Source of the DNA: a bacterium
Lineage (GTDB): Bacteria > Electryoneota > RPQS01
Direction of reading: 5' to 3'
NCBI GenBank assembly: GCA_036504735.1
Contig: DASXUQ010000010.1
Coordinates: 372,001 to 436,000 of the forward strand
DNA length: 64,000 nucleotides
Shown here in pieces: positions 36,791 to 51,722 of this stretch. The notes beneath the pieces were generated by a model, which saw nothing but the letters and a program-made list of their open reading frames with translations, made no database searches and had not been told where the DNA came from. Every line of letters starts with the position of its first letter. The first letter of the stretch is position 1. A program made the translations under genes and the position numbers.

Positions 36791-38452
36791 GTGAAATCAC
36801 TTTCCATCATCCTTCCGGCGGTGTTGCTGACGATGCTGCTGGCATTGTCCTGCGCGCGTATCGGCGCGCCGCCGGGTGGACCGGAAGACAAGACCGGTCC
36901 ACGCGTCGTCAGTTCCTTTCCGGTGCCCGACACCACCAATGTTCCGCGCAAGCTGGTTGCGCGGCTTGTGTTTTCCAAGCCCGTTAACCACAAGTCCGTG
37001 GAGGCGGCGCTGTATATGTCGCCGGATCCGCGTCAACGTCTGCGTTACCATTGGCACGGCAACACGCTGGATCTCATTTATCTCGATTCGCTGCTGGAGA
37101 ACCGCACGTATGTAATCAGCATGGGCAGCCAGGCCAAGGATACGCGCGGCAATCCGGCGGGCACAACCACCACGGTGGCCTTTTCCACGGGATCGCGGAT
37201 CGATCGCGGCTCGGTTGACGGCTGGGTGTCGGACGTGGCCGCTCCGCAGGCGGTGTCGGTGTGGGCGTATCACCTGCGCGGCGATACGGTGCCGAACCCG
37301 ATCAGCGATGAGGCCGATTACCGGCTGCAGGTGGGCAGCGATTCCAGATTTCATTTCGGATATTTGCGCGAAGGACGCTACCGGGTATTCGCGGTGAATG
37401 ACCGGAACTTCGATGGGCTGTGGAATCCTTCGGCGGAGCCGATAGGTATTCCGCCGTGGGATGTTACGGTGGGTGATTCCCTCACTCCGTGGCTGTCTTT
37501 CCGGCTGATGATGCAGGACAGCGCGGCGCCGACGCTGCGCGCTCTGCGCGAGTTCAACGAACACGAAATGGACGTCCGCACCAGCCGCGCGGTGCCGGTA
37601 TTGCAAGGGCACTTTGTGAGCGGAACGGGAGATTCGATCCGGCAACTGGATGCCTTTCCCGATTCGGCGGGTTCGGAAATCTGGCGGGTTTTCCCCGAGC
37701 GCCCATTGACGGCGGGATTGTGGACCGTCACCGTTTCGGGTATGGACAATCTTGGACTGCGATTTACGGCGACGGACACAGTGAGCGCACGGGCGCTTCC
37801 CGACACTGCGCGACCGCACATGACGACCGATCCTGCCGCGCGCATGATGACGCGCATTCCCCCCTCCGCGATGCACCTGATGTTCGATAAGCCGGTGACG
37901 CTCGATAGCCTTGCACCGATTAATTTCCGAATGACGGCAGGCACCGACACCGACACGGTGGTGGTTCGGCTGCAAATTCGCAATCCGCATATGTGGGACG
38001 TTGTTCCGGCGACGCCGTTGCTTGCGGGAAAGCCCGTGAAACTTCGGTTTGACGGAAGGGCCGTGCGAGATCTTGCCGGTCATACCTTGCTGGACACGAC
38101 GGTAAATGTGCAGTTCGGCGTGCTTTCTCCCGACAGCATGGGCGGCATAAAAGGGGAACTGGCGACCAAGGTGAGCGCGCCGTACCTTTACCGGATGTTG
38201 AGCTTTAAAGGCCGCACAACAGAGGTGGCAAAGACGGTTGCTCCGGGGCCGGGAGCGTTCTCGCTGGAGTTGCTGCCTGTCGGCAAGTACCTGATCGAAG
38301 TGACGCGCGACGCGAATCGCGACAGCACGTATTCCTATGGCCGCATGTGGCCTTTCAATTTCTCCGAGCCGTTTCTGACATCCCCGGACACGGTGACGAT
38401 CCGCGCCCGCTGGGAATATGAAACGCAAATTAATTGGCAAGATAACCGTTAG
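36791..38452 (+). CDS. Big_5/Ig-like lipoprotein
   Basis: A 553-residue exported lipoprotein. The signal peptide ends LLALSC (lipobox), followed by ARIGAPPGGPEDKTGPRVVS. The C-x-x-x-G-x-P-x-G-G-P-x-D opening is typical of Bacteroidota Ig-like lipoproteins with an SbsA-type Big_5 domain (about residues 40-135; VPRKLVARLVFSKPVN, GNTLDLIYLDSLLENRTYVI). A middle beta-sandwich and a second Big_5-like part (MHLMFDKPVTLDSL, near residue 360) follow. Start GTG 36791. Function unknown; a periplasmic or surface scaffold is likely. Confidence 0.82.
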   Translation: MKSLSIILPAVLLTMLLALSCARIGAPPGGPEDKTGPRVVSSFPVPDTTNVPRKLVARLVFSKPVNHKSVEAALYMSPDPRQRLRYHWHGNTLDLIYLDSLLENRTYVISMGSQAKDTRGNPAGTTTTVAFSTGSRIDRGSVDGWVSDVAAPQAVSVWAYHLRGDTVPNPISDEADYRLQVGSDSRFHFGYLREGRYRVFAVNDRNFDGLWNPSAEPIGIPPWDVTVGDSLTPWLSFRLMMQDSAAPTLRALREFNEHEMDVRTSRAVPVLQGHFVSGTGDSIRQLDAFPDSAGSEIWRVFPERPLTAGLWTVTVSGMDNLGLRFTATDTVSARALPDTARPHMTTDPAARMMTRIPPSAMHLMFDKPVTLDSLAPINFRMTAGTDTDTVVVRLQIRNPHMWDVVPATPLLAGKPVKLRFDGRAVRDLAGHTLLDTTVNVQFGVLSPDSMGGIKGELATKVSAPYLYRMLSFKGRTTEVAKTVAPGPGAFSLELLPVGKYLIEVTRDANRDSTYSYGRMWPFNFSEPFLTSPDTVTIRARWEYETQINWQDNR

Positions 38453-38464
38453 GAGCGAGTGTTC

Positions 38465-39535
38465 ATGCTCCACTCCGTCATTATGGCGGGCGGAATCGGC
38501 GCGCGGTTCTGGCCGCTGAGCCGCCGTCAGAAGCCCAAGCAACTTCTCGATTTGCTGGGTGAAGGCACTTTGATCGAGCAGACCATTGCCCGCGTGGAGC
38601 CGATGGTTCCGCCGTCGCAGCGCTGGATCGTGACCAATCACGAGCAGATGGCGATGATCCGCGAGACGGTGCCGTCCATTGCCGAGGCGCAGTTCATCAT
38701 CGAGCCGATGGGCCGCAACACCGCGCCGGCCATTGGCCTGTCCGCCGTGAGATTGCTGCGGGAAGATCCCGATGCGGTGATGATCGTGCTGCCTGCGGAT
38801 CACCGGATCGACCACGTCGAAGATTTTCGCCAGTGCCTGCGCACAGCAGTGGATCTGGTGAAAGACTCGGACGTGCTGGCCACCATCGGCATCAAGCCTA
38901 CGCGGCCCGAAACGGGCTACGGATATATCCAGATGGATACCGCGGGTGTGGAATTGGCCCCGCTGACGTACCGCGTGAAGACGTTTGCCGAAAAGCCCAA
39001 TGCGGCGACGGCGAAACTGTTTCTGGAGAGCGGCGAGTTCCTGTGGAACAGCGGCATTTTCATCTGGCGCGCGGACGTGATCATGCAGCAGATTTCCGAG
39101 TATCTGCCCCAATGGTACAGCGGCTTGCAGGAAATCGCGGCGGCGATGGGAAGCGATCAGGAAAATGCCGTAGCCAAGCAGGTGTTCGGCGCGCTGAAAG
39201 GGATTTCCATCGACTACGGCGTGATGGAACGCGCTCCCAGCGTGGCGGTGATCAAAGGCACGTTCGGGTGGAGTGACGTCGGCAGTTGGGATGAAGTGTG
39301 GCGGCTGCTCTCCAAAGACGAGGGCGGAAACGCGTGCCGGGGAAATGTTCAATCGGTGGATTCGAAGGATAATCTGGTGCTCTCGCAGAAGAAATTGATT
39401 GCGCTGGTGGGCGTGCATGATCTGGTGGTTGTGGACGCGGGAGACGCGCTGCTGATCTGTCCGCGAGAGAGTTCGCAGCAGGTGCGGGCAATTGTGGAGA
39501 AGCTGGAAAAACAGGGACTCGAGCGGTATCTGTAG
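38465..39535 (+). CDS. manC: Mannose-1-phosphate guanylyltransferase
   Basis: This enzyme makes GDP-mannose from GTP and mannose-1-phosphate. Motifs are VIMAGGIGARFWPLSRRQKP (GTP/metal), EPMGRNTAPAIGL, LPADHRI, FAEKPNAATA (substrate) and WNSGIFIW. At about 356 residues it is the single-domain form, without an isomerase domain. I chose ATG 38465, nine bases after AGGAG (38451-38455); GTG 38459 is too close to that site. It is the last recognisable sugar gene of the cluster. Confidence 0.93.
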   Translation: MLHSVIMAGGIGARFWPLSRRQKPKQLLDLLGEGTLIEQTIARVEPMVPPSQRWIVTNHEQMAMIRETVPSIAEAQFIIEPMGRNTAPAIGLSAVRLLREDPDAVMIVLPADHRIDHVEDFRQCLRTAVDLVKDSDVLATIGIKPTRPETGYGYIQMDTAGVELAPLTYRVKTFAEKPNAATAKLFLESGEFLWNSGIFIWRADVIMQQISEYLPQWYSGLQEIAAAMGSDQENAVAKQVFGALKGISIDYGVMERAPSVAVIKGTFGWSDVGSWDEVWRLLSKDEGGNACRGNVQSVDSKDNLVLSQKKLIALVGVHDLVVVDAGDALLICPRESSQQVRAIVEKLEKQGLERYL

Positions 39536-39537
39536 AC

Positions 39538-39915
39538 ATGAAACCTGAAAAACTTGTCCAGCATTTGGCGGACGCCGTACGCAAAACCGGCTACCGCGTA
39601 CGCACCGAGGAAGGCAACTTTCGCGGGGGCTCGTGTGTCTTTGCCGAAGAGCGGCTGGTGATTTTGAACCGGCGCATGAGTCAGGAAGAGCGCGCGGACG
39701 TTCTGGGGCGCGTGCTGGCGACCGAAAGCCTCGACACCATTTTTCTGCTGCCTGAGGTTCGAGCGTTCATCGAGAAGTTTCTACCGCCGCAGGAGCCTGT
39801 GGCAAGTGATGAAGAGGTGAAGGCCGATACCGAGCCTGCCGAATCGCCACCGGATGCGCCGAGCGATGCGCCCGCAGCCCCTCCGGAAACGGATCGCGGA
39901 GATGCGGCGCCGTGA
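39538..39915 (+). CDS. Small conserved protein with acidic/proline-rich tail
   Basis: 125 residues. The first 80 form a compact alpha/beta domain (FRGGSCVFAEERLVILNRRM, EERADVLGRVLATE, FLLPEVRAFIEKFLPP). The remainder is Glu/Pro/Ala-rich and disordered. I recall similar short proteins of unknown function in several bacterial phyla. The stop overlaps meaB by GTGA, so the two are translated together, and the ATG lies two bases after the manC stop. No function can be given. Confidence 0.75.
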   Translation: MKPEKLVQHLADAVRKTGYRVRTEEGNFRGGSCVFAEERLVILNRRMSQEERADVLGRVLATESLDTIFLLPEVRAFIEKFLPPQEPVASDEEVKADTEPAESPPDAPSDAPAAPPETDRGDAAP

Positions 39916-40835
39916 AGGATCAGCGCGTAGAGGAGATGCTGGGCGGATCGCGAGTGGCGCTTTCGCGCGTGCTGACGCGTGTGGAGAATCGCCGCGACGA
40001 AGCCAGCGAGATACTGCGGCGGCTGTCCGACAAAATCGGGCGCGCGGTGAGGATTGGATTGACCGGACCTCCGGGAGCGGGAAAGAGCACGCTGGTGGCC
40101 GCGTACACACGGGCGCTGCGGAAGCTCGATATGAAGGTGGGCATTCTGGCGGTGGATCCGACGAGTCCGTTTTCTGGCGGCGCGCTCTTGGGCGACCGTG
40201 TGCGGATGGGATCGGTGGCGATGGACCCGGGAGTGTTTGTGCGCTCGCTGGCGACGCGGGGAGATTTGGGCGGGCTTGCCGAAGCGGCGGGGGACATGGC
40301 CGACGTGATGGACGCGGCAGGGTTCGATGTTATTCTTTTTGAGACCGTGGGCGTGGGGCAGTCGGAGTTGGAAGTGGTGCAGTATGCCGACTGCACGGTG
40401 GTGGTGCTGGTGCCGGAGTCGGGCGACGCGATTCAGGGGATGAAGGCGGGGCTGATGGAGATCGCGGACGTGTTTGCGATCAACAAGTCGGACCGCGAGG
40501 GCTCAGACCGCTTTGCGGCGGATCTGCGCGCGGCGATTCATCTCAAACACTGGGGCGAGTGGACGCCACCAATTGTGCCTGTGGTGGCGCTGCATGACAA
40601 GGGCATGGATGAGTTTCACGCGGCGATCACGCAACATTTGGAATTCTTGAAATCATCGGGGTTGTTCGATAAGCGGCGCACGGACCGCGTACGGCTGCGG
40701 ATTGAGCGGTTTGTCGAGCAGAAGCTGGTTCAGGAATTCTGGACGGAAGCACGGCTGGAGAAATTAGAAACGGCGATCCGTTTGGACAGATCGCCGTATG
40801 AAATCAGCTTGGAGTTGCTCAAGGGAGCGCGTTGA
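39912..40835 (+). CDS. meaB: Methylmalonyl-CoA mutase-associated GTPase MeaB
   Basis: MeaB is a G-protein chaperone protecting and reloading B12-dependent acyl-CoA mutases. Motifs are LTGPPGAGKSTL (G1), VDPTSPFSGGALLGDR, ETVGVGQSE (G3) and INKSD (G4). At 307 residues the C-terminal dimerisation helix region is intact. GTG 39912 overlaps the previous gene (GTGA). No mutase gene is in the window, so the client enzyme is encoded elsewhere. Confidence 0.94.
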   Translation: MKDQRVEEMLGGSRVALSRVLTRVENRRDEASEILRRLSDKIGRAVRIGLTGPPGAGKSTLVAAYTRALRKLDMKVGILAVDPTSPFSGGALLGDRVRMGSVAMDPGVFVRSLATRGDLGGLAEAAGDMADVMDAAGFDVILFETVGVGQSELEVVQYADCTVVVLVPESGDAIQGMKAGLMEIADVFAINKSDREGSDRFAADLRAAIHLKHWGEWTPPIVPVVALHDKGMDEFHAAITQHLEFLKSSGLFDKRRTDRVRLRIERFVEQKLVQEFWTEARLEKLETAIRLDRSPYEISLELLKGAR

Positions 40836-40907
40836 ATCGGCGGTGGCGGCCACTCTGGGTTCTTACCTCGCAACGACAGCACGCCGAAGGCGACCCGGGT
40901 GCAGGTG

Positions 40908-41978
40908 TCACGCCTGCTGCTCCCAGGCCCGTGCTTTGGTGGGGTGGAAGGGTTCTTCGGTATAGAGCATACCGCAGGCGGCGCTCTTTTCGACACCGCG
41001 ACTCTCGCGCAGCGTGCAGTGGATGCCTTCTTCAACCAGCCAGCCCATGAAGCGGTCGATGGCCTGATCGGAACTGGGCGGCAGATCTCCGCCGGTGGGG
41101 TGGAGACGAATCAGATTGACCTTAGCGGGAATGTTGCGCAGCAGGTAGTGAAGATTTTCGGCATCTTCGCGACGGTCATTGTAGCCCGCGATCATGATGT
41201 ATTCGAAGGTCAGCCGGTGCTGCGTGACGTGCGCAAAGCGGCGCAGAGTTTTGAAGAGCATATCCAGCGGAAAAGCGCGATTGACCGGCATAATGGCGCT
41301 GCGGCGCTCGTCGGTGGTGGCATGCAGCGAGATGGCAAGTTTGGCCGGCGGCAGGTCTTTCATCCAGCGTTCGATCATCGGTACGATGCCGACGGTCGAG
41401 ACGGTGATCTTCGATGGAGTAATGCCTACGCCTTCCGGATCGGTGAGAATGGCCAGCGCGGTCTTCACATTCTCATAGTTGTTGAGCGGCTCGCCCATGC
41501 CCATGAAGACGATGTTGGTGACGCGGGTGCCGATCAGCCGTTCGATTTCCAGCACCTGCAGCACAATTTCTCCGGGCGTCAGATTCCGGAAGAAACCCAT
41601 CTTGCCCGTGGCGCAGAAGGTGCAGCCAAGGGCACAGCCGACCTGCGTGGAGATGCAGACCGTTTCGCCGGGGCTTTCGGGCAGGTAGACGGACTCGACG
41701 CGCAGACTGTCGCTCAGGCCGAAGAGAAATTTGACGGCTTTGTCTGCGGAAGGCAGAGTGCGGAGGACTTCGGTCAGTTCGCCTGCCTCGGCAGATTCGG
41801 CCAGTTTTTGGCGAAACATAGCAGGCAGATCGCTCATGTCCTCGAACGAGCGGGCGCGGCGGTGGTACAGCCAGCGATAGAGCTGCTTTCCCCGGTAGGA
41901 CGGTTCGCCCAGCTCTGCCGCGAAACTTTCCAGTTCGCTACGAGTTAAACCGATAAGTGATATTTTAGTGCGGGTCAT
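40908..41978 (-). CDS. rlmN: Dual-specificity RNA methyltransferase RlmN
   Basis: A radical-SAM enzyme methylating A2503 of 23S rRNA (and A37 of some tRNAs). It carries the cluster motif GCALGCTFCATG (CxxxCxxC), GMGEPLNNYENV, SLHATTDERRS, and the second catalytic Cys in KSAACGML. I start it at ATG 41978 (MTRTKISLIGL). The frame is open to 42041, but that would run over the moxR promoter at 41992-42020. It is divergent from moxR and convergent with meaB, with 72 bases between and no clear terminator. Confidence 0.95.
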   Translation of the reverse strand: MTRTKISLIGLTRSELESFAAELGEPSYRGKQLYRWLYHRRARSFEDMSDLPAMFRQKLAESAEAGELTEVLRTLPSADKAVKFLFGLSDSLRVESVYLPESPGETVCISTQVGCALGCTFCATGKMGFFRNLTPGEIVLQVLEIERLIGTRVTNIVFMGMGEPLNNYENVKTALAILTDPEGVGITPSKITVSTVGIVPMIERWMKDLPPAKLAISLHATTDERRSAIMPVNRAFPLDMLFKTLRRFAHVTQHRLTFEYIMIAGYNDRREDAENLHYLLRNIPAKVNLIRLHPTGGDLPPSSDQAIDRFMGWLVEEGIHCTLRESRGVEKSAACGMLYTEEPFHPTKARAWEQQA

Positions 41979-41991
41979 GGTGAGTGTTTGC

Positions 41992-42020
41992 TTGCCACGA
42001 AAGGCGTCTGGGAATATACT
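41992..42020 (+). promoter_or_regulatory. moxR promoter
   Basis: TTGCCA (41992-41997), 17 bases, TATACT (42015-42020), with AAGGAG just before the moxR ATG. Its position limits the upstream extension of the divergent rlmN gene. Confidence 0.7.
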
Positions 42021-42063
42021 AAAGACCCTTCTATTCCGCAAACCGCTTGTCTAAGGAGATATT

Positions 42064-43050
42064 ATGGCGCCAGTCAGTGATCTGGATGCATTGAAATCAC
42101 TACGTGACTCCCGCGATGCCCTGAAGCGCGAAATCGGCAAAGTGATCGTCGGTCAGGATCAGGTGATCGCGGAACTGCTGATCTCTCTTTTGGCGCGCGG
42201 CCACTGTCTGCTGGTCGGCGTGCCCGGCCTGGCCAAGACGCTGTTGATCTCTACACTGGCGCAGGTGCTGGATCTGAAGTTCAGCCGCATTCAATTTACG
42301 CCGGATCTGATGCCGTCGGATATTACGGGCATGGAGATCGCGGAAGAAGATCGCAGTACGGGCCATCGCACGTTCAAGTTCATCAAGGGGCCGGTGTTCG
42401 CGAATATCGTGCTGGCGGATGAAGTGAACCGTACACCGCCGAAGACGCAAGCCGCGCTGCTGCAGGCGATGCAGGAGCATGAAGTGACGGCCGCTGGCGA
42501 AACCTACCGCCTCGAAGAGCCGTTCTTTGTGCTGGCGACGCAGAATCCGATTGAGCAGGAAGGCACCTATCCGCTGCCGGAAGCGCAGCTCGACCGCTTT
42601 ATGTTCAACCTGTGGGTGGACTATCCGACAATGGCGGAGGAAGTGGCGATAGTGAAGACTACGACCTCGGCGGCGTTGTCGGATGTGAAGCGCGTGCTGA
42701 ATGGCCAGCAGATTCAGGATTTGCAGTCATTGGTGCGCCGCGTGCCGGTGTCGGATAATGTGGTGGAATACGCGGTGAAGCTGGTGCAGCGCACCCGTCC
42801 TGCCGCGACCGATGCTCCGCAGTTTATTAAGGATTATGTGAGCTGGGGCTGTGGCCCGCGCGCTTCGCAATACCTGATCTTAGGCGCCAAGACCCGCGCC
42901 GCGCTGGATGGCCGCCCCACACCGGAAATCGATGATGTACGCGCGGTGGCTCTGCCCGTGCTGCGCCATCGCCTGGTCATGAGCTTCAATGCCGAAGCCG
43001 ACGGAGTAAAGGTGCAGGAACTGGTGACAAGATTGCTGGATGGCAAGTAG
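42064..43050 (+). CDS. moxR: MoxR-family AAA ATPase
   Basis: An AAA+ chaperone-like ATPase of the MoxR group, usually paired with a DUF58 protein. Walker A is LVGVPGLAKT, Walker B is VLADEVNRTPPKTQAALLQA, and FVLATQNPIEQEGTYPLPEA is sensor 1 and the region after it. At 328 residues it is full length with the C-terminal lid. RBS AAGGAG sits six bases before the ATG. Normally the DUF58 gene follows directly; here two foreign-looking genes intervene before it (43058-44219). Confidence 0.95.
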   Translation: MAPVSDLDALKSLRDSRDALKREIGKVIVGQDQVIAELLISLLARGHCLLVGVPGLAKTLLISTLAQVLDLKFSRIQFTPDLMPSDITGMEIAEEDRSTGHRTFKFIKGPVFANIVLADEVNRTPPKTQAALLQAMQEHEVTAAGETYRLEEPFFVLATQNPIEQEGTYPLPEAQLDRFMFNLWVDYPTMAEEVAIVKTTTSAALSDVKRVLNGQQIQDLQSLVRRVPVSDNVVEYAVKLVQRTRPAATDAPQFIKDYVSWGCGPRASQYLILGAKTRAALDGRPTPEIDDVRAVALPVLRHRLVMSFNAEADGVKVQELVTRLLDGK

Positions 43051-43057
43051 AGGCTGA

Positions 43058-43903
43058 GTGTTGGAAAAGCACACACTCACACTTGAATCGATCATTGACC
43101 ATCATTCGCTTCTGAGGACTGCGGCCCGTATCGGATCGCTTGGCAGCGCAGTTGATACAGGGTGTCGTTCAGTGCATGTGGATGCCCAAGGTGTTGATGG
43201 CGTCAACCCGGTGTTCGTCGCCGTGATCAACTGCATCGCCGACTTTTTGCGTTCGCGTAATGTGGCTGTTGTCGGATTCACGGCCCCCAAGTCGCTTGTG
43301 GGACGTGAACAAGTGTTCGAGGCCGGTTTGTACGTGTGGCCCATGCACGTGAAGCAGGTGTTGCCGCAATCTTCGGATGAGTCCCCACAACTGAAAGCGC
43401 ACTTCGGGGGCGCGAACCCAGAAGTGATCACCAGATTTGTCGAGACGTTTGCACGGTTCTTTCAGGGCGTGCCAAATCTGATTGAGAACTTGGAATCGAC
43501 ATTGGCCGAACTGATGGATAACGTATCTGCACACAGCGGTTCGAACGAGGGTGGCTGGATCGCAGCCAAATATGATGGTGAGGAGCGTGTGCTTCGTTTC
43601 AGCATATGTGACTTGGGCGTTTCAATTCCTGTTCACCTGCGCAATTCGGACGATGCCTACCGTGCAATGAACGATGTCGAATTGCTGGACGCTGCGTTCA
43701 TTGAAGGTGTCAGCGGGGACAAGAAGACCCATTTCGGGTCAGGTTTGCCATATGTTCGAGATGCGACTGTGCGCGTGAACGGCGCCTTGCAGGTTTATTC
43801 GGGACACGCGATTCACGCCGACCTTTCGCCACGTGGCGAATCAGTCTCAGTCAACACTAGGTTTCCAGGAACGTTGATCATGGCCGGTTGGCCTTCTCTT
43901 TAG
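43058..43903 (+). CDS. STAS-like + GHKL ATPase protein inserted in the moxR operon
   Basis: 281 residues, cytoplasmic, no signal peptide. Residues about 25-95 (VHVDAQGVDGVNPVFVAVIN, FLRSRNVAVVGF) have the strand-helix outline of a STAS-like domain. Residues about 130-275 form a GHKL/HATPase_c fold: N-box LAELMDNVSAHSG (from residue 149), a DLGVSI G1-type motif and FGSGLPYVRD as G2. It lacks the His-containing DHp helices of histidine kinases and so resembles SpoIIAB/RsbW-style or similar regulatory ATPases. Start GTG 43058 (TTG 43061 possible) after AGAGG. Next is a STAS-like (DUF4325) gene, a likely partner. Codon choice looks less GC-biased than the neighbours. Confidence 0.78.
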   Translation: MLEKHTLTLESIIDHHSLLRTAARIGSLGSAVDTGCRSVHVDAQGVDGVNPVFVAVINCIADFLRSRNVAVVGFTAPKSLVGREQVFEAGLYVWPMHVKQVLPQSSDESPQLKAHFGGANPEVITRFVETFARFFQGVPNLIENLESTLAELMDNVSAHSGSNEGGWIAAKYDGEERVLRFSICDLGVSIPVHLRNSDDAYRAMNDVELLDAAFIEGVSGDKKTHFGSGLPYVRDATVRVNGALQVYSGHAIHADLSPRGESVSVNTRFPGTLIMAGWPSL

Positions 43904-43910
43904 GACAGCG

Positions 43911-44219
43911 ATGAAGGTGAATATTCGAGATATTATCGGGAGTGACGCTGCGGTCACCTACGACTTGGGCGTCAAGGTGCGCGAGTCCTACGGCGATAAA
44001 TGGCGATTCGAGCTCATAAGCTTGGATTTTGACGGGATTAGAAGCATCTCGCCATCATTTCTTTCGCAGTCAGTTTCGCCGATAATACGCGAATATCCTC
44101 TTGAGGAGGTACCGTCTCATTTGCATTTCTCTAACGTCCCACCTTCGTTTGATCTGAGTTGGCAGAAGGTTCGTGAAGCGGTTTCTCGACAGAACGCTGA
44201 TGGAGTCAATCGCTCGTGA
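43911..44219 (+). CDS. STAS-like protein (DUF4325 type)
   Basis: 102 residues. The middle segment WRFELISLDFDGIRSISPSF with LSQSVSPIIREY matches my recollection of the DUF4325 STAS-like fold, in which a strand ending FxGIxSISxSFL precedes a helix. It sits seven bases after the GHKL ATPase gene and overlaps the DUF58 gene (GTGA). By analogy with anti-anti-sigma/anti-sigma pairs, it is plausibly the binding partner of the ATPase, but no serine phosphorylation site can be claimed. Confidence 0.7.
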   Translation: MKVNIRDIIGSDAAVTYDLGVKVRESYGDKWRFELISLDFDGIRSISPSFLSQSVSPIIREYPLEEVPSHLHFSNVPPSFDLSWQKVREAVSRQNADGVNRS

Positions 44220-45109
44220 GCACTACCACCGACTTACTAAAACCCGAATTCGTTTCCCGCCTGAAGAATATGCAGCTTCGGGCGAGACTGGTTGTGGAAG
44301 GGTTTATGGTCGGGCTTCACAAGTCGCCGTATCACGGCTTCTCGGTGGAGTTTGCCGAGCATCGTCCCTACATGCCCGGGGATTCGCTGCGCAATCTTGA
44401 CTGGAAAGTGTTTGCCAAGACGGACCGCTATTATGTCAAGCAGTATGAGGAAGAGACCAATCTCAAATCGTATCTGCTGCTCGACGTCTCCAACTCGATG
44501 AACTTCGGCACGACGGGGGTCACGAAGTTTCAGTATGCATCCTATCTGGCGGCGGCGCTATCCTATCTGATGATTCAGCAGCGCGACGCGGTGGGACTGG
44601 CGACGTATGACACGGAGCTGCGTTCCTATCATCCGCCGCGCTCGGTGCACACCTATTTGAATGTGCTACTGACACAATTGGAGAAGACGCAGCCTTCCGC
44701 CAAGACGGATATCGGCAAGAACCTGCACTCGGTGGCGGACCGCATTTCCCGGCGCGGCCTGGTAATTGTACTCTCCGATCTGCTGGACGATCCCGCCCGT
44801 ATGTTGTCCGGACTGAAGCATTTCCGCCATGAGGGCCATGAAGTGCTGGTGTTCCACATTCTGGACCCGCGGGAAATTGACTTCGCCTATTCGGGCGATG
44901 TGCGGTTCCGCGATCTGGAAACGGAAGAGGAGATGCCCACCCAGCCGTGGCATTTGCGGAAAGCGTACCGCGAGCAGATTCAGGAATTCATTGAGAGTCT
45001 GCGCCGGGGCTGCCGGGAAGACAGCATCGACTACGTGCTGCTGAACACCGAAACGTCGTACGCAGAAGCCTTGATTCAATACCTGACCAAGCGCAAGCGG
45101 TTGCGCTGA
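44216..45109 (+). CDS. DUF58 domain protein (MoxR partner)
   Basis: 297 residues, soluble. A conserved HRPYMPGDSLRNLDWKVFAK block is followed by a von Willebrand A-like domain with a metal site (LLLDVSNSMNFG, a DxSxS motif). These proteins pair with MoxR ATPases, probably in cofactor insertion or envelope-related complex assembly. The GTG start overlaps the STAS-like stop (GTGA), so translation is coupled to the intruding pair. A strong terminator follows at 45140. Confidence 0.9.
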   Translation: MSTTTDLLKPEFVSRLKNMQLRARLVVEGFMVGLHKSPYHGFSVEFAEHRPYMPGDSLRNLDWKVFAKTDRYYVKQYEEETNLKSYLLLDVSNSMNFGTTGVTKFQYASYLAAALSYLMIQQRDAVGLATYDTELRSYHPPRSVHTYLNVLLTQLEKTQPSAKTDIGKNLHSVADRISRRGLVIVLSDLLDDPARMLSGLKHFRHEGHEVLVFHILDPREIDFAYSGDVRFRDLETEEEMPTQPWHLRKAYREQIQEFIESLRRGCREDSIDYVLLNTETSYAEALIQYLTKRKRLR

Positions 45110-45139
45110 AAGTTGACCCCCCATTGAATTTTGCGGAAT

Positions 45140-45168
45140 CCCCTGCCTATCGGCAGGGAATTTTTTTT
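45140..45168 (+). terminator. Intrinsic terminator of the moxR operon
   Basis: CCCTGCC (45141-45147), loop TATC, GGCAGGG (45152-45158), AA, then eight T residues. Confidence 0.92.
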
Positions 45169-45299
45169 CTCTGAAGGTGAACGTTCACAAGCCGGAAGGG
45201 ATGAGGTCAATTTGGCAAACATTTCTATTACAATTATTTAGGGTGGCTGTCGAGGGTCGTTTCGGATAGGTGCATTCGGTGATTATTGTGGCATGTCGC

Positions 45300-45328
45300 T
45301 TGCTTAAGGCTATAACACGCAATATAAC
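45300..45328 (+). promoter_or_regulatory. Promoter of the XRE gene
   Basis: TTGCTT (45300-45305), 17 bases, TATAAC (45323-45328), with start of transcription near 45335, 26 bases before the ATG. Confidence 0.7.
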
Positions 45329-45360
45329 GGTCGACAAACCTCAACCGACAGGAATATCCG

Positions 45361-45648
45361 ATGGCTTCCTCGTTAACTCGAACGTACGTTCGCCGCACGC
45401 AACTGGGCCGCGCCGAATTTGACAATGAGCGCATTCGCCGCTTGCGTCAGGAGCTGAACATGACTCAAGAGAGCTTTGCTCACGAAATCGGCGTCACCTT
45501 CGCCACCGTGAACCGGTGGGAGAATGGCCGCACCACGCCGAACAAGGTTGCGCAGAAGGTTCTGGGACTGCTCGAGAAGAAACTGCGCAAGCTGAAAAGT
45601 CCGTCTGAGACAGACAGTCTGCTGCAGCAGGTCGCGAGTCAGCAATAG
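45361..45648 (+). CDS. XRE-family helix-turn-helix regulator
   Basis: 95 residues. A basic N-terminal arm (RTYVRRTQLGR) leads into an XRE/Cro helix-turn-helix (IRRLRQELNMTQESFAHEIG, then VTFATVNRWENGRTTPNKVA). This is followed by a Lys-rich helix and a polar tail. There is no toxin or antitoxin partner beside it: the next gene is a convergent one beyond a palindrome. The target is unknown. Confidence 0.85.
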   Translation: MASSLTRTYVRRTQLGRAEFDNERIRRLRQELNMTQESFAHEIGVTFATVNRWENGRTTPNKVAQKVLGLLEKKLRKLKSPSETDSLLQQVASQQ

Positions 45649-45652
45649 AAAA

Positions 45653-45674
45653 CCGGAGCCGCATGCGGCTCCGG
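45653..45674. terminator. Bidirectional palindrome between convergent genes
   Basis: An 11-base arm starting CCGGAGCCGCA and its exact complement make a perfect 22-base palindrome between the XRE gene and the convergent small gene. No T-run is present. It probably folds in both transcripts. Confidence 0.6.
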
Positions 45675-45726
45675 CACTAAGAACAAAGCTATGTCAAGAT
45701 TTTGAAGACGTATCTCGTGTGTTTAA

Positions 45727-45984
45727 TTAGTCGGCACGCTTGATATCGAATTGCTTGCAGAGCTTCTCGAGTTCATGCTCGGCGCCCTCTTCCATATCCT
45801 TGGAATCGGCGTAATCACGGAGTTGCTTGGCCAGCAGTTCAATGCCGGTGGTAATGAAACTCATGGCTTTGGCGTCTGCCCCACGCTCGGCCAGAATCTG
45901 CGCGGATTTTCCCAGCATGGTCATGGCCAGGCTATAGGTCAAGAAGATCCGGCTGTTTTCCATAGTCTCTTCAAAACTGGACAT
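45727..45984 (-). CDS. Small helical conserved protein
   Basis: 85 residues, all-helical in appearance: SRIFLTYSLAMTMLGKSAQI, then FITTGIELLAKQLRDYADSK and an acidic end EEGAEHELEKLCKQFDIK. A good ribosome site (AGGAG) precedes the ATG, and a promoter lies at 46081-46109 on the same strand, so it is expressed as a single gene. I cannot place it in a family; a remote likeness to DUF1844-type small proteins is only an impression. Confidence 0.7.
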   Translation of the reverse strand: MSSFEETMENSRIFLTYSLAMTMLGKSAQILAERGADAKAMSFITTGIELLAKQLRDYADSKDMEEGAEHELEKLCKQFDIKRAD

Positions 45985-46080
45985 GCTGTACTCCTTATGT
46001 TCTCAACTTGCTGTTGGTGTATTTGAACCAGCAGTTTGCGGCTCTTTCGAACCACAGGGTGCGTCACAAGAACCGTAGTA

Positions 46081-46109
46081 AATATACTCATCATAGATCG
46101 GCTGCGCAA
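46081..46109 (-). promoter_or_regulatory. Promoter of the small helical protein gene
   Basis: On the minus strand: TTGCGC (complement of 46104-46109), 17 bases, TATATT (complement of 46081-46086). Confidence 0.65.
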
Positions 46110-46320
46110 GCGAAATGTTTTGGAATCTACACCTCACCGGCGGCAGGGTTATGAAGCATTACGAACCCGATTTTGCTCAATGGACAGATCAAAATCACAT
46201 GCCTTTTCTTAATCAGGTTTTGGCGCAAAGCCAAAATAATTCAAATAATCAGCCCGCCGCTCACGGCTTCAACATGTTATGGCGTAACGTTTTGAAGTTC
46301 TTCAATCACTCTCGGACGGG
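46110..46320. other. Intergenic, left of the candidate RNA
   Basis: It contains a perfect seven-pair hairpin TTTTGGC-GCAAA-GCCAAAA (46218-46236) and TTGAAGTTCTTCAA. An open frame from ATG 46151 (70 codons) has an unconvincing Asn/Gln-rich translation and runs into the structured element; it is not accepted as a gene. Confidence 0.5.
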
Positions 46321-46478
46321 AGGGTCAGCGAGGAAAAGCGGCACGCCTCCTTACCTCTCATAAGCCTCTCTTAAATGAAGGTGACCCAGCATTCCTTACG
46401 AGTCACTCAAGGCGTGCTTCCTGCCTTGCTCCGCGCGGTCAATTAGCGTTTGATCGCGCTTCATGCGCTCCTGACCCT
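46321..46478 (+). ncRNA. Candidate structured RNA upstream of folC
   Basis: Nested complementary segments span 158 bases. AGGGTCAG plus GAG (46321-46332, one bulged C) pairs with CTCCTGACCCT (46468-46478), eleven pairs. Inside, GCACGCCT (46341-46348) pairs with AGGCGTGC (46410-46417), eight pairs. Innermost, GTGAC (46381-46385) pairs with GTCAC (46402-46406). A side hairpin GCGCGGTC/GATCGCGC (46433-46459) lies in the 3' half. The outline, a long rod with a wide asymmetric bubble bearing a small 3'-side hairpin, recalls 6S RNA, but I see no diagnostic sequence. Strand is not certain, and a regulatory leader is the alternative. Confidence 0.4.
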
Positions 46479-46508
46479 GCCTGCTATTACTTGAACACTG
46501 CATACCGC

Positions 46509-46537
46509 TTGCTGGTTTCGCAGAGTAAGCTTATCTT
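46509..46537 (+). promoter_or_regulatory. folC promoter
   Basis: TTGCTG (46509-46514), 17 bases, TATCTT (46532-46537), giving a leader of about 30 bases before the GTG start of folC. Confidence 0.65.
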
Positions 46538-46572
46538 TAGCCAAGCATCTGTATCCAAAACCCGCAACGCCT

Positions 46573-47874
46573 GTGCACTTCCCAGACTTTTCTTCCGTTG
46601 AACACTATCTTGACTCGCTGGTCAACTATGAGCAGGCTTTTCCGCTGGGCGGGGCACGCGATCGCCCCAAGCTCGCTCCGACTCTTGCGGCCATAGAGCG
46701 GCTGAAACTGCCCCTCAGGCTGCCGCAGTGCATCCACATTGCCGGAACCAAGGGGAAGGGGTCGACGGTATCCTTTCTCGAATGTTTACTGTCTGAGGGG
46801 CACCGTGTGCTGTCTTTTACCAGCCCGCACCTGATGTCCGTCAAAGAGCGGGTGCGGCTCAATGGGAAACTGCTTGATGACGCCGTCTGGCAAAAAGGAT
46901 TCGCAGAGATCCATGACCGGTTGGGTGAGGAACCTGCGATCAAGCTGACCTACTTCGAGAGCGTGCTGATCTTCTATTTATGGGCGGCAAGAGAATTGAA
47001 AAGTGATGTGCACGTGGTAGAAGCCGGTCTGGGCGGAAAGTGGGATGCGACCAACGTGCTGGAGAATACTCTGGCGGTGCTGACACTGGTGGACTACGAC
47101 CACACGGAGATTCTGGGGAACACGCTGACGGAGATCGCCACGGACAAGAGCGGGATCATCAAGCATGCGGTGCGGGTTGTCGTGGGCCGGCAGCCGGAAG
47201 AAGCGCTGCAGGTCTACCGGCGGCGGATTGTCGAGGAGCAGGCCAAAGCACACTATTTCGGCGCGGATTATGGCTGGGAGGCGGTGGAGGATGAGCAGTT
47301 CCGCTATTGGGACAACCATGAGATTATCGGCACTCTAAGGCTATCCATGCCGGGAGTGCATCAGCGCGACAACGCGGCGATTGCGCTGCGCGCAGCGCGG
47401 CTGCTGGTGCCGGATCTTGATCCACAAGTCGCGCGTGTACAGCTGAGGCAGTGTAAGATTCCCGGGCGGCAGCAATTGCTGGCCGGATCGCCGGATGTAA
47501 TGGTGGACGTGGCGCACAATCCTGTGTCCTTTGCGGCACTGGCGGCCACACTGCGTGAAAGGTACGCCGGGCGGCGGATTCTGGCGGTTGTGGGCATGAT
47601 GAAGGACAAGGACGCAAAGACGTCGCTGGCGTGCTTAAAAGGCCTTGTGGACGAACTGCTGGTGGTGGCGCTGCCGAATCCACGTTCGGCCAAGCTGGAG
47701 ACGTTGCGGGAGATTGCCAATTCGCTGGGCTTTAACGTGCGGTGCCCCGAATCGCTGGATAGGGCCTTTGAAGAGCTGCACGGCAAAGGCGGCCATGATC
47801 TTGGGCTGGTGGCGGGTTCCTTTTATTTGGCGGGAGACTATTTGCGCTGGAGACAACGTGCCGGAATTGCCTGA
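46573..47874 (+). CDS. folC: Folylpolyglutamate synthase/dihydrofolate synthase
   Basis: FolC adds glutamates to folates (and may join dihydropteroate to glutamate). The P-loop is HIAGTKGKGSTVSFLE, followed by SPHLMSVKERVRLNG. The middle has LGGKWDATNV and DYDHTEILGNTLTEIATDKS, and the C-terminal Mur-ligase domain has VDVAHNP. At 433 residues it is a normal length. The start is GTG 46573 (MHFPDFSSVEHYL) with a poor ribosome site. The stop overlaps mutM by 17 bases. Confidence 0.94.
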   Translation: MHFPDFSSVEHYLDSLVNYEQAFPLGGARDRPKLAPTLAAIERLKLPLRLPQCIHIAGTKGKGSTVSFLECLLSEGHRVLSFTSPHLMSVKERVRLNGKLLDDAVWQKGFAEIHDRLGEEPAIKLTYFESVLIFYLWAARELKSDVHVVEAGLGGKWDATNVLENTLAVLTLVDYDHTEILGNTLTEIATDKSGIIKHAVRVVVGRQPEEALQVYRRRIVEEQAKAHYFGADYGWEAVEDEQFRYWDNHEIIGTLRLSMPGVHQRDNAAIALRAARLLVPDLDPQVARVQLRQCKIPGRQQLLAGSPDVMVDVAHNPVSFAALAATLRERYAGRRILAVVGMMKDKDAKTSLACLKGLVDELLVVALPNPRSAKLETLREIANSLGFNVRCPESLDRAFEELHGKGGHDLGLVAGSFYLAGDYLRWRQRAGIA

Positions 47875-48676
47875 AGTTGAAACCGTGGTGCGGCTCATCC
47901 GGCCGCGGCTGGTGGGGAGGACGATTCGGGATGCGACCTTTACGATTCCGCGCCAACTGCAACCGCAAACGGCACGGGAGATTCTGCGGGCGGTGAAGGG
48001 GCACTCCGTTAAGGATGTTCGCCGCCGGGGCAAGTACATCCTGATTGAACTGGACAACGGGACTCTGCTGGTGCATCTGCGGATGACGGGCAAGCTGTAC
48101 GTGCGGTCAGCCACGCTTGACGGCGGGCAGCATGAGCGCGCGCTGTTTGTGCTTGATGACGGACGTGAGAAGCTGGTACTGCATGATCCGCGGACCCTGG
48201 GAACGATCCGCTTCTATCCTGCGGGAACGGCCATTCCTGCGCTGGAAGGATTGGGCAAGGAGCCGCTCGAAGAGCAGGAAGACATTGGCGTGATGCTGGA
48301 GAAGCTGCAGCGCCGCAGCATGGCCATCAAACCATTGTTGTTGAATCAATCCCTGTTTGCGGGAGTCGGCAACATCTATGCGTCGGAGGCACTGTGGGTC
48401 GCGAAGATCGATCCCCGCAGGCCGGCCAACGAACTGACCCGCGCGGAACTGAAGCGTCTGACGGCGGCGGTGCGAAAGGTGCTGCTGCGGGCTATCGAGA
48501 AGGGGGGAAGCACGCTCAGGAATTTTGCCGACCCGGAAGGCCGTGCGGGATCCTATCAGAAGGAATTCAGCGTCTATGGGCGGGAAGGTGAGCCGTGTTT
48601 GCATTGCGGTAAGCCTGTCGAGCGGATGGTGCAGGCGCAGCGGGCCACGTACTTCTGCAAGGGGTGCCAGAAGTAG
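47858..48676 (+). CDS. mutM: Formamidopyrimidine-DNA glycosylase
   Basis: MutM removes 8-oxoguanine and ring-opened purines from DNA. After start removal the catalytic N-terminus is PELPEVETVVRLIRP. The conserved Lys is in LLVHLRMTGKLYV, the helix-two-turn-helix is LLLNQSLFAGVGNIYASEAL, and the zinc finger is CLHCGKPVERMVQAQRATYF followed by CKGC. GTG 47858 with GGAG just upstream is the only start that gives the needed PELPE terminus, inside the end of folC. Confidence 0.96.
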   Translation: MPELPEVETVVRLIRPRLVGRTIRDATFTIPRQLQPQTAREILRAVKGHSVKDVRRRGKYILIELDNGTLLVHLRMTGKLYVRSATLDGGQHERALFVLDDGREKLVLHDPRTLGTIRFYPAGTAIPALEGLGKEPLEEQEDIGVMLEKLQRRSMAIKPLLLNQSLFAGVGNIYASEALWVAKIDPRRPANELTRAELKRLTAAVRKVLLRAIEKGGSTLRNFADPEGRAGSYQKEFSVYGREGEPCLHCGKPVERMVQAQRATYFCKGCQK

Positions 48677-48705
48677 AGTGGTGCGTGATAGAAAAAGGAT
48701 ATGAG

Positions 48706-48735
48706 AAAAGGCGGGACCAGATGGCCCCGCCTTTT
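48706..48735. terminator. Bidirectional terminator between mutM and the protease gene
   Basis: AAAAGGCGGG (48706-48715) pairs with CCCGCCTTTT (48726-48735). A-tract and T-tract on opposite sides let it serve both convergent genes. Confidence 0.85.
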
Positions 48736-48758
48736 GATTTTCGATCGTGTACTGCCGG

Positions 48759-51722
48759 CTACTTGAGGTACATCAGCTTGACCGGTTTGGTTTGGCCACC
48801 ACTCCAGGCTACTTGGGCAAAGTAAATGCCTGTGGCCGTGTGCGGCTGCCACGCAACGGTGCCTGTGCCGACCCCAAGGTGGCGGTGCTCCACTTCGCGG
48901 CCCATCAGATCGAAGATCCGCAGATCGCCGCCCATAGGGGACGGGATGGAATAGGAGATGTTTGCCGTTCCGTTGAAGGGATTGGGGTAGGCCGGGCCGA
49001 TGGACCAGACCGTGGGCAGGGCCATGCGATGAACCGCCGGTTCTGCGGGCAGAACATCAACTGCCCAGGCCTGCAGATTGTCCAGCAACCCCGGCAGATC
49101 TGTGGATCCTGCGGCCATACCGGAAACGGCTTCGATTCCAAAGCCGAACAACAGGCCTTTGCCCTCTGCAAAGGACACACCGGCGGTCTGGCCGCCCGCC
49201 GTCCGACCGTAACTGGTGACGATGCGAGCGCTGTCGGGCACTGTGAAGGACGTCTGCTCAGTCTGGTTGTTTGCGCCGTAACCGCCGCTCAGCAGGAACC
49301 ACTCGCCATGGGAAAACGGTGCCTGTGTGCCCGTGGCCGCCAGCGTACGCATGCTGGGGTCATTGATCTGCACGTGAAGCACATTTTCCATGAAGTCCGT
49401 TGCGCCCAGAGAATCCACGATGTTCTGGCCGGAGAGCACTACGCGGTTTCCGGCGGCCAGATACGATTGCAGGATTGTCTGATCCGTGGGGGTCAGAATG
49501 TTGCCGCTGGCATTGCCCGAAAGCCAGATCACCATTCCGGGCTGGGGCAGAATACTTGCCTGAATGGACTGGCCCGCGGCGACCGACACGGAATCATAGA
49601 TGTTCTGGTGATCCCGCATGGCGGCGCGAACAAAACTTTCCACGTCGGAAGACTGATCATTCTGCACGATCAACACGCGGGGCGTTCCTACCTGAAATTC
49701 GAATTCCTGATGCAGGGTGGCGGTGCCGCCGTTGGCGCTCACGTCGATCTGTATCACCACCCAGCGGTTTGGGCCGTCGGCGGTGAGGGCCAGGTGAATG
49801 GGCGCTACGGCATGTCCATGGCTGGCGGCCAGCGTGTCAATCGTCTGCGTGGCGTTGTCCATCGACAGGGATTGATCGGTGGTGTGGACGACGATCTGGA
49901 CTCCCGTCGCCGGCGGCGGATACAGGATGGCGTCATTGGAAACATTGAACACCAACTCAATGGTTTCACCCTGCTCGAAGAAACGGTCTCCATCGCCATG
50001 GCTACCGCCCTGACCGTTGGCGTAATAGGCGAGATCATGGATGGCCAGAACGGGATCATCTCCTGAACCGATACCGTGGGCGTTGAAGGCGTCGTAAATC
50101 ACCCGGCTGTGCGGCGTCCCGTTGGACAGATCGCCGTCGTTGTCGTCCGTCTCCAGCACGGCAATCATGTAGTCCACAAACGTCGTCGCCAAACCGTAGC
50201 GGGCAAAGTGAGCGAGACTGTCGCCGATTTGTGTCCCCAGTTGCTCGCGGATACTCCAGAGTGATGCTGAAATGAACGGGCTGTCGGCGTGCACTTCGCC
50301 CTGCCAGTCACGCGGGAAAACCATGGTGCTGAGCAGATTGCGGAAGTAGCTGGCAAAGGATCCGCCGATCCAGTCGCCCATATAGGGATCGCCGTTGATG
50401 GTGCAGCCGATGTAGTCGGACCATCCTTCATTCATGGCGCCGGTCTGGCCTGCATAGGGGAAATCCACGCCGTCGTAAATGCTGCCGGTCACACCGTGGG
50501 AGAATTCATGGTAGATGACGTCGCTGAACATGGCGAAGTTCAAGTACATCGAGCCTGTGCCGAAGGCCATGCCATTGCCGCCCCAGAAGGCGTTGTCATA
50601 GTTGATGCCATAATTGGCGATGGTCGGCACGGGATAATCGAGATCCGAAAAGCCGGGATCGAGAACCTTGTACCAGTCATGCACGAAATTGACATGATGA
50701 TAGAGGTTCAATTCGGCATGTGTGGCGTCATTCTCGCCCCACGTCCAGGCAAGGGGAGAATAGGGCGCGGTCAGATTTTGACTCAGATGGCCTGCTTCGC
50801 CCGCGTCATTCATCACATAGACATACCGTCCGTTCAGTCCGGTAGAGAGCTGCGCGGCATTGCCGGCTTCGATACTGAAGGTTCCTGTGGAACTGGAGTA
50901 GACGCTGTCGGCATTGACATAAATGTTTTCGTAGGGAAAGGGGCCGGTCTGGACGTCGCTCTGGATGTAGGGCTGCCAGTACGCGCCGCTCATGGTGCCG
51001 GACAGCACGTCGGTCTGGATTCCCGGCCAGTCCATAATGATCTCACCGGAGGTGGCATCGACGACGCCTTCCCAGCGTTCATCCGGGCGTGCGCCCTGAA
51101 TATGCACCCAGTAAGCCGGGCGCAGAGTATGGGTATCGTAATCGGGGAACCACGCGGCGAAGCTTCGCGATGCATCCAGTTGCCAGTCGGCGGAAGGTCG
51201 CGTGGCGGACAGAGCGGATGCAGCGGTAGGCAGGCTCAGGTCATGGCGTCCCTTGGATGGCCAGCGGTCATGAGCGCGCAAACTCCAGCGCATGAGCTGG
51301 CCGCGCGCGTTGATCACCAGATCCGCGCGACCCGCCAGCACCGGCAAACCGTCCCGCATTTCGCGGAAGTAGTGGCGGGTCAGGCGTCCGGTTGTCTTTG
51401 TGCGAATGAGATCGAAGTGAGCATCTGTTTCGGCGGCAGCGGTAACAAGCCGCAGCACAGACGCAGGATTCTGAGAGGTGAGATTGGCCGGCGGGCCATA
51501 GGCCAGCGCAGGCATATTCAGCCCCGTGCTCCAGAAGACAGACCAGTTAGCAAATGGAGTCTGGTTGAGCTGGCCGGACTGCGGTGTGCGTGTCAGGTCC
51601 TGAACATCGCGCTCCGCCGGCCACTGCACAGCCCACGCCAAAGAGGTGGACAGCAGAAGCATGGCGATAGTGACGAACAACGCTTTGCTGCTGAAATGAC
51701 CCGTCAGGATTCTCCGTTTCAT
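48759..51722 (-). CDS. Secreted zinc metalloprotease (M4/M36-like) with C-terminal sorting domain
   Basis: A 987-residue exported protein. The signal peptide (about 1-31; TIAMLLLSTSLAWA) is followed by an FTP-like propeptide (HYFREMRDGLPVLAGRADLV). The protease has HEFSH at residues 405-409 and the third ligand in NEGWSDYIG. The layout between them (GVDFPYAGQTGAMNEGWSD) is intermediate between thermolysin (M4) and fungalysin (M36) families. After a beta domain, a Rossmann-like segment follows (about 665-770; VLIVQNDQSSDVESFV, LSGNASGN, LSGQNIVDSL). The last 75 residues (AYPNPFNGTANISYSI, IFDLMGREVE, TATGIYFAQV) form a type-A sorting domain. Surface or secreted protein degradation is likely. 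Confidence 0.9.
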   Translation of the reverse strand: MKRRILTGHFSSKALFVTIAMLLLSTSLAWAVQWPAERDVQDLTRTPQSGQLNQTPFANWSVFWSTGLNMPALAYGPPANLTSQNPASVLRLVTAAAETDAHFDLIRTKTTGRLTRHYFREMRDGLPVLAGRADLVINARGQLMRWSLRAHDRWPSKGRHDLSLPTAASALSATRPSADWQLDASRSFAAWFPDYDTHTLRPAYWVHIQGARPDERWEGVVDATSGEIIMDWPGIQTDVLSGTMSGAYWQPYIQSDVQTGPFPYENIYVNADSVYSSSTGTFSIEAGNAAQLSTGLNGRYVYVMNDAGEAGHLSQNLTAPYSPLAWTWGENDATHAELNLYHHVNFVHDWYKVLDPGFSDLDYPVPTIANYGINYDNAFWGGNGMAFGTGSMYLNFAMFSDVIYHEFSHGVTGSIYDGVDFPYAGQTGAMNEGWSDYIGCTINGDPYMGDWIGGSFASYFRNLLSTMVFPRDWQGEVHADSPFISASLWSIREQLGTQIGDSLAHFARYGLATTFVDYMIAVLETDDNDGDLSNGTPHSRVIYDAFNAHGIGSGDDPVLAIHDLAYYANGQGGSHGDGDRFFEQGETIELVFNVSNDAILYPPPATGVQIVVHTTDQSLSMDNATQTIDTLAASHGHAVAPIHLALTADGPNRWVVIQIDVSANGGTATLHQEFEFQVGTPRVLIVQNDQSSDVESFVRAAMRDHQNIYDSVSVAAGQSIQASILPQPGMVIWLSGNASGNILTPTDQTILQSYLAAGNRVVLSGQNIVDSLGATDFMENVLHVQINDPSMRTLAATGTQAPFSHGEWFLLSGGYGANNQTEQTSFTVPDSARIVTSYGRTAGGQTAGVSFAEGKGLLFGFGIEAVSGMAAGSTDLPGLLDNLQAWAVDVLPAEPAVHRMALPTVWSIGPAYPNPFNGTANISYSIPSPMGGDLRIFDLMGREVEHRHLGVGTGTVAWQPHTATGIYFAQVAWSGGQTKPVKLMYLK

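What the first reader, a model, noticed from the sequence alone, without database searches (positions are those of the whole stretch)
43051..44219. GHKL ATPase/STAS-like gene pair lodged inside the moxR-DUF58 operon
moxR and its DUF58 partner are normally adjacent. Here two genes separate them: a protein with an N-terminal STAS-like part and a GHKL ATPase domain (LAELMDNVSAHSG, DLGVSI, FGSGLPYVRD), and a 102-residue DUF4325-like STAS protein. The second overlaps the DUF58 gene by GTGA, so the pair is built into the translational relay rather than merely inserted. The layout recalls partner-switching modules (ATPase plus STAS antagonist) without a sigma factor. It could put the MoxR/DUF58 machine under a phospho- or nucleotide-switch.
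Basis: partly seen in the sequence, partly recalled or inferred. Interest (0 to 1): 0.75.

Follow-up and report, generated by a model that had tools for sequence, protein, structure and literature searches.

The report
Toxin-less VapK/VapS-like switch in moxR operon
Between the two genes of a core bacterial operon sits a kinase and its likely substrate, of a kind known from anti-phage systems but without the toxin; related pairs sit, swap and vanish inside a second core operon in related bacteria, so core enzymes may be wired to, or may simply carry, a defence-type switch.

Summary
moxR (42064-43050), K (43058-43903), S (43911-44219) and DUF58 (44216-45109) are packed with 7, 7 and -4 base spacings and end at an intrinsic terminator. 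K is a STAS-GHKL kinase, S a DUF4325 protein. They are homologues of VapK and VapS from vapKSC (PMC13373217): profile-profile E 1.2e-23 for K, E 6.6e-14 for the S family to VapS (PDB 9Z7O). The VapC toxin is absent. The same order occurs in three more genomes of the family. In five families of the phylum S (with K wherever visible, except G011) lies inside a second core operon, sucC|sucD (11 genomes). No S context examined outside the phylum adjoins either operon. Cassettes have lower GC3 than their flanks, come and go (at least 9 changes at sucC|sucD) and were exchanged between families (AU p about 1e-4), yet the kinases of the two junctions form separate clades. Two relatives carry a DndB-like + GIY-YIG pair in the same moxR|DUF58 junction. 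Most likely a slot-locked, exchangeable kinase-substrate switch; whether its output is the neighbouring core protein is untested. New variant of a known kind.

The parts
41992..42020 (+). promoter-like hexamers upstream of moxR (TTGCCA-17-TATACT), candidate operon promoter
   Evidence: consensus match only, number found equals shuffles
42064..43050 (+). moxR, AAA+ ATPase (AAA_3), first gene of the host operon
   Evidence: Pfam 1.7e-63
43058..43903 (+). K: 281-aa VapK-like kinase, N-terminal STAS-like domain + GHKL domain
   Evidence: HATPase_c 2.2e-5; phrog_3364 2.6e-23; profile-profile with VapK set E 1.2e-23
43058..43387 (+). N-terminal STAS-like (sensor) part of K, residues 1-110, hypervariable (18-24% identity to relatives in the same junction)
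43508..43534 (+). N-box E151-x3-N155-x3-H159 of K (N155 and H159 in 23/23 kinases, E151 in 22/23)
43610..43618 (+). G1 box D185-L-G187 of K, D and G invariant
43736..43747 (+). G2 box G227-S-G229-L230 of K, glycines invariant
43911..44219 (+). S: 102-aa DUF4325 STAS-like protein, VapS-like putative kinase substrate
   Evidence: PF14213 39.6 bits; family profile to VapS 9Z7O E 6.6e-14
44055..44057 (+). codon of Ser49 of S, candidate phosphoacceptor, conserved in all 15 S proteins of the two junctions
44216..45109 (+). DUF58 (vWA) protein, second gene of the host operon, overlaps S by GTGA
   Evidence: Pfam 1.6e-53, sequence
45141..45168 (+). intrinsic terminator closing the operon (CCCTGCC-TATC-GGCAGGG + T run)

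Best explanation
The pair is a toxin-less VapK/VapS-type module carried as an exchangeable cassette between the stop codon of moxR and the start codon of DUF58. K senses a signal through its variable N-terminal STAS-like domain, and its GHKL domain phosphorylates a conserved serine of S (Ser49, less likely Ser47), which makes S let go of a partner. No promoter is evident directly upstream of the cassette, and it is most likely expressed with the operon. By analogy with vapKSC, where S holds the product of the next gene (VapC), the partner of S is most likely the product of the adjoining core gene: DUF58 (or MoxR) here, SucD/SucCD in the sister cassettes. Shown: homology, intact catalytic residues, conserved serine, fixed junctions, patchy presence, exchange, absence of VapC. 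Inferred: phosphorylation, co-transcription, and the partner of S.
For: K and VapK kinases align over STAS and GHKL parts (hhalign E 1.2e-23) and share phrog_3364; the S-family profile finds VapS 9Z7O at 6.6e-14, phmmer with S alone 0.019. N155, H159, D185, G187, G227, G229 in 23/23 kinases; Ser49 in 15/15 S. PMC13373217 reports ssDNA-activated phosphorylation of CapS by CapK in vitro and VapS-VapC binding lost on S48E. Same order in G001, G006, G009. Sister cassettes inside sucC|sucD in 11 genomes of 5 families; none of the S contexts examined outside the phylum touches sucCD or moxR/DUF58. The moxR-junction kinases form one clade (100/99), the sucCD ones another (98/94), although cassettes moved between families (AU p 1e-4 and 2e-4) and presence needs at least 9 changes. 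No PIN gene in any of these loci. S stays more conserved than K (G000-G009: S 63%, K GHKL 48%, K N-terminus 18%; MoxR 87%).
Against: No experiment and no usable structure model (K pLDDT 37, S 67). No MoxR or DUF58 residue change is specific to K-S carriers. A DndB-like + GIY-YIG pair occupies the same junction in two relatives, which fits a generic cargo slot as well. The slot lock could reflect how cassettes enter rather than function. The single sucCD clade was broken in a smaller tree with long branches. VapS Ser/Thr sits one column from Ser49 in the alignment.
Confidence: 0.5

Rival explanations
1. Stowaway defence or anti-addiction cassette: K-S only borrows the transcription of a core operon. 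S acts in trans (for example on toxins of VapC type brought by invaders, or on DNA or other proteins) and has nothing to do with MoxR/DUF58 or SucCD.
For: Cassettes are patchy, GC3-poor against their flanks in every genome checked, exchanged between families, and the moxR|DUF58 junction also takes a DndB-like + GIY-YIG pair; G007 (empty) and G010 (occupied) are one genus with 95% identical MoxR. K belongs to a phage-borne family.
Against: Cassettes that move this freely would be expected in many operons; nearly all S genes of this phylum (15 of 17) sit in only two junctions, each with its own kinase lineage.
Confidence: 0.38
2. Sigma-factor or transcription partner switch: K is an anti-sigma-like kinase and S its antagonist, controlling a sigma factor or a promoter elsewhere, as in SpoIIAB/SpoIIAA or CapK/CapS.
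For: K-family profile hits anti-sigma F factor at 8e-5; CapS is a DNA-binding repressor (PMC13373217).
Against: No sigma factor in the operon; S is 102 aa with no winged-helix domain and K has no HTH.
Confidence: 0.08
3. Decayed vapKSC remnant whose toxin was lost; the rest drifts without function.
For: vapKSC with PIN exists in the phylum (G032:C29, L161) and the toxin gene is missing here.
Against: Open frames, catalytic residues and Ser49 kept over deep divergence in both junction lineages; S 91% identical between G006 and G009.
Confidence: 0.04

Closest known systems
vapKSC toxin-antitoxin/anti-phage operon (PMC13373217)
   Same: STAS-GHKL kinase without HTH followed by a STAS protein of DUF4325 type; gene order K then S; homology over nearly the full length of K and of S
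   Different: no VapC (PIN) gene; S tail shorter than the essential VapS tail; candidate ssDNA-contact aromatic of VapK not kept; lies inside a core operon
capK/capS controller of immune operons (PMC13373217)
   Same: GHKL kinase plus STAS substrate with conserved serine
   Different: no HTH on K, no winged helix on S, no immune operon downstream
SpoIIAB/SpoIIAA and RsbW/RsbV partner switches
   Same: N-box E-x3-N-x3-H, serine in the STAS helix region
   Different: no sigma factor, K carries its own N-terminal STAS-like domain
SypE/SypA of Vibrio fischeri (PMC10120452, abstract only read)
   Same: serine kinase plus single-domain STAS protein acting outside the classic sigma module
   Different: different kinase architecture and neighbourhood as far as known; not compared by sequence here

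Membership tests
vapKSC | STAS-GHKL kinase related to VapK | tested here: met
   hhalign E 1.2e-23 over 228 columns; shared phrog_3364
vapKSC | STAS protein related to VapS next to the kinase | tested here: met
   profile E 6.6e-14 to 9Z7O
vapKSC | conserved Ser/Thr phosphoacceptor in S at the VapS S48 position | tested here: inconclusive
   Ser49 invariant in 15/15, one column away from VapS S/T48 in the alignment; Ser47 on the other side
vapKSC | VapC-like PIN toxin gene directly after S | tested here: not met
   next gene is DUF58; no PIN match in window 38001-50000 or sister loci
vapKSC | aromatic ssDNA contact in the kinase (VapK F54, CapK W68) | tested here: inconclusive
   the one always aromatic column of five VapKs (W/F) is G, D, D, A in the moxR kinases; the mapping to F54 is inferred, Escherichia VapK was not at hand
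vapKSC | C-terminal inhibitory tail of VapS (residues 94-116) | tested here: inconclusive
   S ends at residue 102, relatives at 97
capKS | HTH on K and winged helix on S | tested here: not met
   no such Pfam hits
capKS | immune operon downstream | tested here: not met
   DUF58 then terminator; PADLOC finds no system in the operon
anti-sigma/antagonist partner switch | cognate sigma factor in the operon | tested here: not met
   four genes only, none a sigma factor
anti-sigma/antagonist partner switch | Ser phosphorylation of the STAS protein by the GHKL kinase | not testable with these tools
   needs a kinase assay

The most novel reading that the evidence does not exclude
Defence-type VapK/VapS switches have been captured to control core enzymes directly: S binds and holds succinyl-CoA synthetase (sucC|K-S|sucD) or the MoxR/DUF58 machine (moxR|K-S|DUF58) and releases it when K phosphorylates S, so that a core enzyme takes the place of the toxin. 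The sensor part of K is hypervariable while the output side is more conserved.
Probability: 0.3. Interest if true: 0.82.

Novelty: new variant of a known kind. Interest (0 to 1): 0.6.

Why it matters
The kinase-substrate pair of vapKSC was described in 2026 with a toxin as output. Here the pair occurs without a toxin at two exact junctions inside core operons, exchanged between families but not found at such junctions elsewhere in the sample. Either core enzymes serve as its output, which would link phage or stress sensing directly to central metabolism and to a MoxR/vWA machine, or coupled core gene pairs are a regular hiding place for accessory cassettes. Both are testable, and it gives the unexplained family DUF4325 a concrete biochemical prediction.

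Tried and rejected
AlphaFold2 with three sequences: K useless (pLDDT 37), S weak (67), Foldseek uninformative; no structural claim is made. PADLOC DrmA hit on K is a partial GHKL match and was rejected. Flank-by-flank DNA identity was checked for a homologous-recombination tract next to exchanged cassettes: none visible, divergence too high. MoxR/DUF58 residues tied to K-S: only one MoxR position, shared with outgroups. Escherichia VapK could not be fetched, so F54 was not mapped directly. Paper searches for a K-S pair at sucCD or moxR found nothing; bioRxiv is not covered.

Full report
Observation. The window holds a four-gene operon: moxR 42064-43050, K 43058-43903, S 43911-44219, DUF58 44216-45109, closed by an intrinsic terminator at 45141-45168. 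S is a DUF4325 protein (39.6 bits, cut-off 23), K has a GHKL ATPase domain just under the Pfam cut-off (25.3 against 26.4 bits). The GTGA overlap of S with DUF58 is real. The finding's coordinates are right.

What the genes are. A profile of ten relatives of S finds only one chain in the PDB, Escherichia VapS (9Z7O), at E 6.6e-14. VapS belongs to vapKSC, reported with capK/capS in PMC13373217: in that paper CapK phosphorylates CapS in vitro when activated by single-stranded DNA; VapS binds and inhibits VapC, and a phosphomimic (S48E) releases it; vapKSC protects E. coli against a phage. Loci with the vapKSC order were found in the sample, one in the window's own phylum (G032:C29, K-S-PIN). Kinases of five such operons and the four junction kinases align end to end, STAS-like and GHKL parts (hhalign E 1.2e-23), and K and the G032 VapK both match phrog_3364. 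So K and S are VapK- and VapS-like by sequence. VapC is missing: no PIN gene occurs in the operon, in window 38001-50000, or in any sister locus.

Catalytic state. N155, H159, D185, G187, G227 and G229 are identical in 23 kinases, E151 in 22. S proteins of both junctions keep Ser49 (15 of 15) and mostly Ser47. In VapS the Ser/Thr is one column earlier, so the exact phosphosite is open. A column that is always W or F in the five VapKs, the likely equivalent of CapK W68/VapK F54, is G, D, D, A in the moxR-junction kinases. The signal may therefore not be ssDNA; this mapping is inferred.

Where it occurs. The same order is present in G001, G006 and G009; G009 and G006 correspond to deposited MAGs, one titled candidate division KSB1 bacterium. 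Other family members have an empty junction (G002, G007) or, in G005 and G010, another pair: a DndB-like DGQHR protein and a 112-113 aa GIY-YIG protein. G007 and G010 are one genus with 95% identical MoxR, and the insert lies exactly between stop and start codons. On the G004 contig no moxR is found upstream of DUF58.

A second junction. In other families of the phylum S, usually with K, lies between sucC and sucD, the two subunits of succinyl-CoA synthetase: G006, G011, G017, G018, G022, G024, G026, G030, G032, G033, G036. In G011 a membrane protein takes the place of K; in G036 the contig begins within S, and a K fragment lies at another contig's end. G006 has cassettes in both junctions. 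Of 17 DUF4325 genes detected in 39 genomes, 15 are in these two junctions, one is a vapKSC and one a weak hit in G034 beside an anti-sigma-like gene. Among 386 genomes searched (347 outside the phylum), DUF4325 elsewhere occurs as vapKSC with PIN, as fusions of an N-terminal HTH-like part, GHKL and DUF4325, as K-S beside a membrane gene, or alone; none of the contexts examined adjoins sucCD or moxR/DUF58.

Mobility and lock. Every insert measured has lower GC3 than its flanks, usually by 10-30 points. Presence at sucC|sucD needs 9 changes on the sucC+sucD tree, no more clustered than shuffled labels, and the kinase tree rejects grouping by family f3 (p 1e-4) or genus g28 (p 2e-4). So cassettes have been exchanged. 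For the moxR junction, G009 is equally distant from G000 and from G006 in MoxR (87%) and DUF58 (85-86%), but K is 37% against 72% and S 63% against 91%: exchange or strong diversification, concentrated in the N-terminal part of K (18% against GHKL 48%). In spite of that, moxR-junction kinases form one clade (100/99) and sucCD kinases another (98/94); a smaller tree with long outgroup branches did not keep the latter together.

Mechanism. Best model: K phosphorylates S, and S changes partners. In vapKSC the partner is the product of the next gene. Transferring this, the partner is the adjoining core protein. The slot lock speaks for it; the alternative cargo pair, the absence of matching changes in MoxR and DUF58 and the foreign composition speak for a stowaway. 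I give the first about 0.5 and the second about 0.38. Identity as a toxin-less VapK/VapS-like pair is near certain; membership in vapKSC proper is not claimed because VapC is missing.

Limits. Nearly all genomes are metagenome assemblies; the census depends on the Pfam model; no structure model of K was usable; co-transcription is inferred from spacing, lack of an internal terminator on the + strand, and the terminator after DUF58. One promoter-like site lies within S (44029-44058), not more than chance.

Noticed in passing
L041:2934-4405 (G010), L040:105-1564 (G005): DndB/DpdB-like DGQHR protein plus small GIY-YIG protein in the same moxR|DUF58 junction; found nowhere else in the phylum as a close match.
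   Followed up: partly
L163:1100-2036 (G011): sucC|sucD junction with a membrane protein followed by S and no kinase.
   Followed up: partly
L166:3754-4785, L169:2580-3617: Single-chain fusions of an N-terminal HTH-like part, GHKL kinase and DUF4325 (about 345 aa), common outside the phylum: kinase and substrate in one protein.
   Followed up: partly
L216:3978-4331, L208 (reverse), L168:3977-4327: DUF4325 gene next to a cyclophilin-type peptidyl-prolyl isomerase gene, conserved in three genomes (G330, G191, G043).
   Followed up: no
L153:3303-4043 (G025): A methyltransferase gene sits between sucC and sucD in another genome.
   Followed up: partly
L090:2725-4177 (G014), L086 (G019), L087 (G015), L073 (G021): Unrelated genes (DUF4097-type pair, redoxin-like, others) between moxR and DUF58 in other families.
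   Followed up: partly
L041:4422-5008 (G010): DUF58 reading frame is broken near the contig end; real frameshift or assembly error.
   Followed up: no
window 45361-45648: XRE-type HTH gene (MqsA-antitoxin-like) directly after the operon terminator, with no evident toxin partner.
   Followed up: no
G031:C61:1709-2488 (L230): A K-like reading frame with one in-frame stop and no DUF4325 match in that genome, 15 kb from sucCD.
   Followed up: no
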